This document shows positions 18,681 to 19,199 of a DNA stretch of 64,000 nt, one piece after another. Within the stretch, counting starts at the first letter, position 1, and each line of letters opens with the position of its first letter. Under the pieces are notes generated by a model. The model did no database searches. It saw only the letters and a list, made by a program, of their open reading frames with translations, and had not been told where the DNA came from. The translations under genes and the position numbers were made by a program. Origin of the DNA: Aurantimonas marina (GTDB lineage: Bacteria > Pseudomonadota > Alphaproteobacteria > Rhizobiales > Rhizobiaceae); contig NZ_JADDXW010000003.1 in NCBI RefSeq assembly GCF_017183135.1, forward strand, positions 1 through 64,000. The letters are read 5' to 3'.

Positions 18681-18949
18681 TTGTTCGTGGAATTCGATCC
18701 GTCCAAGGATGAGGAAAACGTCGCCAAGCACGGAATCTCATTGGCGCGCGCCTCAGATATGGACCTGAAGGTAGTCCTTCCGGACGAGCGGAAGGACTAC
18801 GGAGAAGTCCGGTATCGCGGATTCGGACTGATCGACGGAAAGGCTTACTCCCTTGCCTTCACGATCCGATCCGATCCGGATCGGTGCGACCAATCAGTTT
18901 ACGCCGCGCCCACCGCAAGGAGTTCGAGCGGTATGTCCAAGCATCCTAA
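18681..18949 (+). pseudogene. brnT: BrnT toxin gene broken by a 5-base tandem-repeat expansion
   Basis: The first about 60 codons encode a BrnT ribonuclease toxin: FDPSKDEENVAKHGISLARASD, then DYGEVRYRGFGLIDGKAYSLAFTIR. At 18862-18876 CGATC occurs three times in tandem and the frame is lost. The remaining family residues (VRPISLRRAHRKEFERYVQAS, ending TAA at 18947-18949) continue in the other frame from GTG 18884. Removing one CGATC copy restores an intact BrnT of about 90 residues. As it stands, the toxin frame runs in frame into brnA, so a BrnT(N)-BrnA fusion could be made. Start is TTG 18681 or, more likely, GTG 18687. Loss of the C-terminal residues should inactivate the toxin. A sequencing error in the repeat cannot be excluded. 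Confidence 0.8.
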
Positions 18950-19199
18950 ACCTCGCGCTTCCGACTCTGACAACCCCGAATGGACCGAGGCGGACTTCCG
19001 GGCGGCCAAGCCGGCCGACCAGGGTCTGCCGCCCGAAATCGTCGCACAGTTCCGCAACACTCGCGGAGCGCAAAGGGCCGTCAAGAAAGTTCCAGTGTCC
19101 CTGCGGCTCAGCCCGGACGTGGTCTCGCATTTCAAGGCCAGCGGTCCCGGCTGGCAAACCCGGATCGACGAGACGCTCAAGCGGGCGATCAGCAAGTGA
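18933..19199 (+). CDS. brnA: BrnA antitoxin
   Basis: An 88-residue antitoxin starting MSKHPKPRASDSD. The acidic middle (NPEWTEADFRAAKPADQGLPPEIVAQF) is the toxin-binding part and the C-terminus (VPVSLRLSPDVVSHFKASGPGWQTRIDETLKRAI) is the ribbon-helix-helix DNA-binding domain. It overlaps the original end of brnT by 17 bases, as usual for this system, and its stop overlaps the GTG start of rsmI (GTGA), tying the core gene rsmI to the translation of the antitoxin. It is probably still functional as an autorepressor even though its toxin is damaged. Confidence 0.88.
   Translation: MSKHPKPRASDSDNPEWTEADFRAAKPADQGLPPEIVAQFRNTRGAQRAVKKVPVSLRLSPDVVSHFKASGPGWQTRIDETLKRAISK

What the first reader, a model, noticed from the sequence alone, without database searches (positions are those of the whole stretch)
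18681..19199. A CGATC tandem-repeat expansion breaks brnT and fuses it in frame with brnA
CGATC occurs three times in tandem at 18862-18876. With three copies the BrnT frame is lost and runs straight into the BrnA frame, so one 172-residue reading spans both genes. With two copies the frame is restored and ends in typical BrnT residues (ISLRRAHRKEFERYV). A short repeat at the break could allow reversible on/off switching of the toxin by slippage, and the fused product would place a truncated toxin on its own antitoxin. Neither has been described for BrnTA as far as I know.
Basis: partly seen in the sequence, partly recalled or inferred. Interest (0 to 1): 0.72.

Follow-up and report, generated by a model that had tools for sequence, protein, structure and literature searches.

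The report
Broken toxin gene beside intact antitoxin
In an Aurantimonas-type bacterium a five-letter repeat one copy longer than in its nearest intact relative has broken a small self-poisoning gene and left its antidote gene whole; the same broken copy sits in a second species, so it looks like ordinary toxin decay, not a sequencing error or a proven on/off switch.

Summary
CGATC occurs three times in tandem at 18862-18876, inside brnT. From there one open frame runs through brnA, while the BrnT tail lies in another frame. The conserved start is GTG 18687, so the joint ORF is best taken as 170 aa, not 172. Assembly error is very unlikely: Aurantimonas marianensis, about 8% divergent around the locus, carries the same allele inside a 228-bp tract identical to the window. 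Aurantimonas sp. 3-561 has a shorter array and intact brnT; A. aggregata and G007 also have intact brnT there.

Best reading: brnT was inactivated by a one-unit slippage, and the broken allele is shared by two species, probably through recombination. BrnA survives with its own start, Shine-Dalgarno-like site and an upstream palindrome. The in-frame join needs no selection: in 42 of 97 intact pairs the brnA frame is already open back to this point. A second brnA (8478-8774) stands without a toxin here and in G006, under purifying selection.

Reversible switching is unsupported but not excluded. Ordinary decay, mildly interesting.

The parts
18636..18649 (.). perfect 14-bp palindrome ATCGTATATACGAT upstream of brnT; candidate BrnA operator (inferred)
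   Evidence: With up to one mismatch it is found only here in G000 and only at the same place in A. marianensis; G003 has a one-mismatch site elsewhere; 5 of 8 genus genomes have none. Also present in 3-561 (alignment).
18687..18860 (+). brnT 5' part, GTG start (inferred), still in the BrnT frame (58 codons)
   Evidence: Pfam BrnT_toxin 1-59/77, E 1.7e-9 for the piece 18681-18866 alone; start conserved in A. marianensis and 3-561.
18862..18876 (+). CGATC x3 tandem array, site of the frame break
   Evidence: same array in A. marianensis, shorter in 3-561, unrelated bases in A. aggregata and G007
18871..18884 (.). perfect 14-bp palindrome CCGATCCGGATCGG overlapping the end of the array; possible aid to slippage (inferred)
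18872..18949 (+). BrnT tail, now in a different frame from the 5' part; ends at TAA 18947-18949, overlapping brnA by 17 nt
   Evidence: Pfam BrnT_toxin 61-77/77, E 0.024 for the piece alone; in 3-561 the same stretch is in one frame with the 5' part
18687..19199 (+). single open frame joining truncated BrnT to BrnA (170 aa)
18917..18922 (+). AAGGAG, Shine-Dalgarno-like, 10 nt before the brnA ATG
   Evidence: read from sequence
18933..19199 (+). brnA, 88 aa, intact antitoxin gene
   Evidence: Pfam BrnA_antitoxin E 1.2e-21 for 18942-19196 alone; dN/dS 0.11-0.27 among three species
18774..19001 (.). 228-bp tract identical to A. marianensis around the array; likely recombination tract
   Evidence: Longest of 1495 identical runs in the aligned parts of the contig; next 180, 176 and 160 bp. 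7 of 7 two-state sites in it set 3-561 apart.
8478..8774 (+). second brnA (98 aa) without a brnT; comparison case for toxin-first decay
   Evidence: G000 and G006 have no brnT there; A. marianensis has a frame-broken one joined to brnA; dN/dS G000 vs G006 0.07

Best explanation
This is a decayed BrnTA toxin-antitoxin module. A one-unit expansion of CGATC, most likely by strand slippage next to a palindrome, shifted the frame about 60 codons into brnT. The broken gene loses the conserved C-terminal ISLRRAHRKE..RY segment, so the toxin is presumably dead. brnA is intact and kept, with its own start and an upstream palindrome shared by the three close species, probably as an autorepressor or as an antitoxin against other BrnT toxins. 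The broken allele is shared with A. marianensis, probably by homologous recombination or recent common descent of this small tract. The joint 170-aa frame is a by-product of the tail's alternate frame having no stop. Shown: the array, the frame break, the same allele in a second species, intact relatives, intact and conserved brnA, and a second brnA without a working toxin in three genomes. Inferred: slippage as the cause, the direction of change, loss of toxicity, recombination, the operator, and the present use of BrnA.
For: Same allele in A. marianensis and window; G004 is A. marianensis by exact containment of L034. Intact brnT in 3-561, A. aggregata and G007 at the same place. The 228-bp identical tract. 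BrnT residues lost include near-invariant ones (I67, R70, A72 of alignment A1, 20 sequences). brnA dN/dS 0.11-0.27. The brnA frame is open back to BrnT model position 63 in 42 of 97 intact pairs. At the second locus G000 and G006 have no brnT, brnA is under purifying selection (0.07), and A. marianensis has a frame-broken brnT. A third G000 brnT (C7) is also broken while its A. marianensis copy is open in one frame. Three tandem copies can be enough for slippage: in P. putida gains and losses of CTGG at its three-copy array were the largest class of lacI-inactivating mutations (PMC3485313, passages). Orphan antitoxins are common (PMC10790755, PMC7192599, passages).
Against: No expression or toxicity data. 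The retained brnT part shows no clear decay: dN/dS 0.05-0.17 among the three close species over 58 codons, which fits either a recent break or some use of the joint protein. The identical tract is the longest run but not far ahead of others (228 against 180 and 176), so recombination is likely, not proven. At the second locus loss of brnT in G000 and G006 was not polarised against gain in A. marianensis. No canonical -1 slippery heptamer was found, but rarer recoding is not excluded.
Confidence: 0.8

Rival explanations
1. Reversible phase variation: array length changes by slippage at useful rates and turns the toxin on and off.
For: Both array states exist among three close species. A three-copy array is a known slippage hot spot (PMC3485313, passages). 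A palindrome abuts the array.
Against: Only three copies; two species hold the same state in an identical tract, which fits inheritance or exchange better than frequent toggling. No within-strain variation could be examined. Searches for phase variation with toxin-antitoxin terms (3 of 3 papers listed, 12 of 22 listed; titles and abstract openings only) showed no such precedent.
Confidence: 0.07
2. Functional fusion: the 170-aa truncated-BrnT-BrnA protein is made and selected, for example as a repressor or a decoy for other BrnA/BrnT partners.
For: The frame is open in both species. BrnT-BrnA fusions exist elsewhere (PMC11980606, passages), and further single-frame cases were seen here: A. marianensis locus 2, C. 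segnis FS, G416, G754. The retained brnT part has low dN/dS (0.05-0.17).
Against: brnA keeps its own ATG and Shine-Dalgarno-like site. The alternate frame is open in 42 of 97 intact pairs anyway. The join lies in the identical tract, so the two species give no independent test of constraint on the linker. The model has pLDDT under 50 at residues 63-97 and mean 63.7.
Confidence: 0.09
3. Assembly or sequencing error in the window genome.
For: Draft assembly of 66 contigs; raw reads not available.
Against: The same 15-bp array is in A. marianensis LRZ36, a separate record about 8% divergent around it.
Confidence: 0.02
4. Programmed ribosomal frameshifting at the array makes full BrnT from the broken-looking gene.
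For: Both frames are the same in the two carriers.
Against: No canonical slippery heptamer at 18820-18945; the carriers are identical there, so frame conservation carries no information; close relatives encode BrnT without any shift.
Confidence: 0.02

Closest known systems
BrnTA type II toxin-antitoxin module (Brucella abortus type; PF04365/PF14384; structure 3u97)
   Same: toxin-first gene order, toxin tail overlapping brnA (17 nt here), BrnT and BrnA family matches
   Different: here the toxin frame is broken before its conserved C-terminal segment
BrnT-BrnA fusion genes of PMC11980606 (mBio 2025)
   Same: one reading frame holding BrnT-like and BrnA domains
   Different: here the toxin domain is truncated by a frame break and some 20 residues of alternate-frame sequence join the parts; whether the published set holds such cases was not seen (passages only, no supplement)
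Orphan antitoxins (PMC10790755, PMC7192599)
   Same: antitoxin kept without a working toxin
   Different: the dead toxin is still in place at this locus
lacI CTGG x3 frameshift hot spot (PMC3485313)
   Same: three tandem copies of a short unit gaining or losing one unit and breaking the frame
   Different: laboratory mutations in a reporter; here a natural allele in two species

Membership tests
BrnTA type II toxin-antitoxin module | BrnT domain over the whole profile in one frame | tested here: not met
   Only 1-63 of 77 in frame; the rest in another frame
BrnTA type II toxin-antitoxin module | BrnA domain downstream | tested here: met
   E 1.2e-21 alone
BrnTA type II toxin-antitoxin module | toxic RNase neutralised by BrnA | not testable with these tools
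   needs a bench assay
BrnT-BrnA fusion protein | both domains in one open frame | tested here: met
   (BrnT part truncated)
BrnT-BrnA fusion protein | fusion is the translated product | not testable with these tools
   brnA also has its own start and Shine-Dalgarno-like site
Phase-variable repeat locus | repeat length varies between isolates of one strain or species | not testable with these tools
   only species representatives were available; three species show two states
Phase-variable repeat locus | array whose unit is not a multiple of three, inside a coding frame | tested here: met
   5-bp unit, three copies
Orphan antitoxin after toxin loss | antitoxin open and under purifying selection while the toxin is broken or absent | tested here: met
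   brnA dN/dS 0.19 between the two broken-allele species, partly in an identical tract and few changes; stronger at locus 2, 0.07

The most novel reading that the evidence does not exclude
The array is a slow, reversible genetic switch for a toxin-antitoxin module. In the 'off' state the operon makes BrnA carrying a dead BrnT head, which could keep the repressor complex working without toxicity, and the allele spreads between species by recombination.
Probability: 0.06. Interest if true: 0.65.

Novelty: new member of a known kind. Interest (0 to 1): 0.27.

Why it matters
It gives a natural example of the order in which toxin-antitoxin modules die: toxin first, antitoxin kept. Two loci in one neighbourhood and several genomes show different lesions with the same outcome. 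It also shows how a simple frame break can create a toxin-antitoxin 'fusion' that annotation could report as one protein, which matters for surveys that count such fusions. If the array does switch, it would be a toxin-antitoxin module under repeat control.

Tried and rejected
Assembly error: set aside because a second species has the array. Recoding: no canonical slippery heptamer. A wider regulon for the palindrome: in the 8 genus genomes the only further site, with one mismatch in G003, lies in a stretch with no similarity found to the window's locus. Structure of the joint protein: low confidence (best of five models mean pLDDT 63.7, the others 49.9-55.8; pTM 0.43), not used beyond noting a poorly predicted joint. 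A search of solved structures with the truncated piece alone gave nothing significant (best E 0.058, to 7vd7); the profile of alignment A1 finds 7vd7 and 3u97. Heaton et al. 2012 is not held, so the importance of the lost residues rests on conservation only. No paper in the library holds the name Aurantimonas marianensis. The retained brnT part was examined for relaxed selection; 58 codons are few and about half of them lie in the identical tract. A first dN/dS run for brnA used a start 9 nt too far downstream for the window; it was repeated with the right start. A note taken counts 8 sites in the tract; the script gives 7, and the probability printed there is for 8. The survey lost one case (L022) because its brnA was a duplicate of a cut locus (L145); the count was redone without the two cut loci.

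Full report
What is there. The window lies in a genome that the search tool places in one genus with G004 and G002. These are A. marianensis LRZ36 and A. aggregata, by exact containment of sequence between the named and unnamed records. Between hemW and rsmI (names from my reading of the ORFs, not searched) lies a small operon. GTG 18687 opens a BrnT frame; CGATC x3 sits at 18862-18876; brnA runs from ATG 18933 to 19199. The piece before the array matches BrnT (profile 1-59), the stretch just after it matches BrnT 61-77 but in another frame, and brnA matches its family on its own. The frame that leaves the 5' part meets no stop and continues as brnA, giving 170 aa from GTG, or 172 from the non-conserved TTG 18681.

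Is it more than chance or error? The 15-bp array occurs once in the 4.03-Mb genome and no other 5-mer has three exact copies in the window. An error of this assembly is very unlikely. A. marianensis LRZ36 has the same array and the same joint frame, though its contig is 92.1% identical to the window over 10.7 kb around the locus and 89.9% over another 8.5 kb. Aurantimonas sp. 3-561 has a shorter array and an intact one-frame brnT; A. aggregata and G007 have intact brnT with unrelated bases at the site. So the longer array is most simply the derived state. The DNA search found the locus over most of its length in 4 of 8 genus genomes (G000, G004, G007, G002); the other four had none or a short piece.

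How two species came to share it. In a three-way alignment of the window, A. marianensis and 3-561, two-state sites over 14100-23300 split 416 (3-561 apart), 368 (window apart) and 320 (A. marianensis apart), with 53 three-state sites, so no pair is clearly sister. But from 18774 to 19001 the window and A. marianensis agree at every base, and all 7 two-state sites there set 3-561 apart. With the regional proportion this has a chance of about 0.001, worked out by me from the proportion; the borders were chosen after looking. The run is the longest of 1495 in the aligned parts; the next are 180, 176 and 160. I read this as a small recombination tract or recent shared ancestry carrying the broken allele. 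Because the tract is identical, it says nothing on selection for the joint frame.

What is lost and what is kept. The broken frame drops the segment aligned to ISLRRAHRKE..RY, which holds near-invariant residues in alignment A1 (20 sequences) and is largely present in solved BrnT 3u97 and in 7vd7. That this kills the toxin is inferred. brnA is intact. Its dN/dS is 0.19 between window and A. marianensis, 0.11 between A. marianensis and 3-561, and 0.27 between window and 3-561. A perfect palindrome at 18636-18649 upstream is shared with A. marianensis and 3-561 and has no other match in G000 with up to one mismatch. It is a candidate BrnA operator. The retained brnT part has dN/dS 0.05-0.17 among the three species, so it shows no clear decay.

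Does the fusion need explaining? Among 97 neighbouring pairs with full-length BrnT in a different frame from brnA, the brnA frame was already open back to BrnT model position 63 in 42. A frame break of the right sense at this point will therefore often join the two genes. In a survey of the 190 loci then held, 163 distinct brnA-anchored places gave 126 with one-frame BrnT, 11 with BrnT split over two frames, 10 with other partial forms and 16 with no BrnT piece (which redoes without two cut loci that hid one case). Of the 11 split ones, 4 run in frame into BrnA: the window, A. marianensis, A. marianensis locus 2 (L022) and G754 (L161); the first two share one allele. Two of the 126 one-frame BrnTs share an ORF with BrnA (L036, C. 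segnis FS; L147, G416). These loci were mostly fetched with the joint protein or its parts, so the proportions lean towards fusions, and frame breaks in metagenome assemblies may be errors. In whole-genome searches with the joint protein, stop-free single-frame matches that begin within its first 30 residues and pass residue 160 are listed in 3 of 394 family genomes (window, A. marianensis at two loci, G416) and 2 of 397 order genomes (window, G754). Similar matches with stops inside are G196, G480 and G457. G007, whose BrnT is intact, shows a stop-free brnA-frame match back to residue 44, which illustrates the open alternate frame. Both match lists were cut, so these are lower bounds.

The neighbouring locus tells a similar story. 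At 8478-8774 the window has a second brnA. A. marianensis has a brnT before it, broken at nearly the same profile position (58) and also running in frame into brnA; the window and G006 have no brnT there, with what looks like the same junction. I did not polarise loss against gain, but loss is simpler. Between the two toxin-less genomes brnA differs at 24 of 294 bases but only 5 residues, dN/dS 0.07. Here the antitoxin appears to be kept by selection without its toxin. A third brnT of this genome (C7) is broken too, its A. marianensis copy being open in one frame.

Mechanism. A slippage step adding one unit, possibly helped by the adjoining palindrome 18871-18884, is the simplest cause. Three tandem copies can be enough: CTGG indels at a three-copy array were the largest class of lacI-inactivating mutations in P. 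putida (PMC3485313, passages). The same precedent means that rare reversal is physically possible, but nothing here shows that it is used. Keeping brnA fits published ideas on orphan antitoxins: anti-addiction or regulation (PMC10790755 and PMC7192599, passages).

Known or new. BrnT-BrnA fusions are in print (PMC11980606, passages: 28 prokaryotic and 4 eukaryotic in Table 2; the text says 33). I saw no paper on repeat-controlled BrnTA in the listings (25 of 58 listed; 3 of 3; 15 of 98; 12 of 22); beyond listings I saw only the passages. The joint protein was modelled with 23 aligned sequences: the last 30 residues score 79-88 (block means), residues 63-97 below 50.

Verdict. A real lesion of an ordinary kind: toxin-first decay with a by-product fusion, shared by two species. 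The switch hypothesis stays open mainly because no population data could be examined.

Noticed in passing
window 8478-8774: brnA without a toxin, under purifying selection; toxin also absent in G006 and frame-broken in A. marianensis.
   Followed up: yes
G000:C7:11065-11266 (L027, L031): Another brnT of the same genome broken over two frames; its A. marianensis counterpart (L014) is open in one frame.
   Followed up: partly
window 21071-22400: Second region, in the ABC transporter gene, where the window and A. marianensis are close and 3-561 is strongly different; looks like another recombination tract.
   Followed up: no
L161 (G754) around 1470-2000: Independent BrnT frame break earlier in the gene that also runs in frame into BrnA.
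   Followed up: partly
L036 5001-5528 (Caulobacter segnis FS) and L147 1476-2015 (G416): Single-frame BrnT-BrnA ORFs with nearly complete BrnT, closer to the published fusions.
   Followed up: partly
G004:C95:19955-20140 (L030): BrnT match ending at profile position 62 in A. marianensis; appears frame-broken compared with G006:C49 (L033).
   Followed up: no
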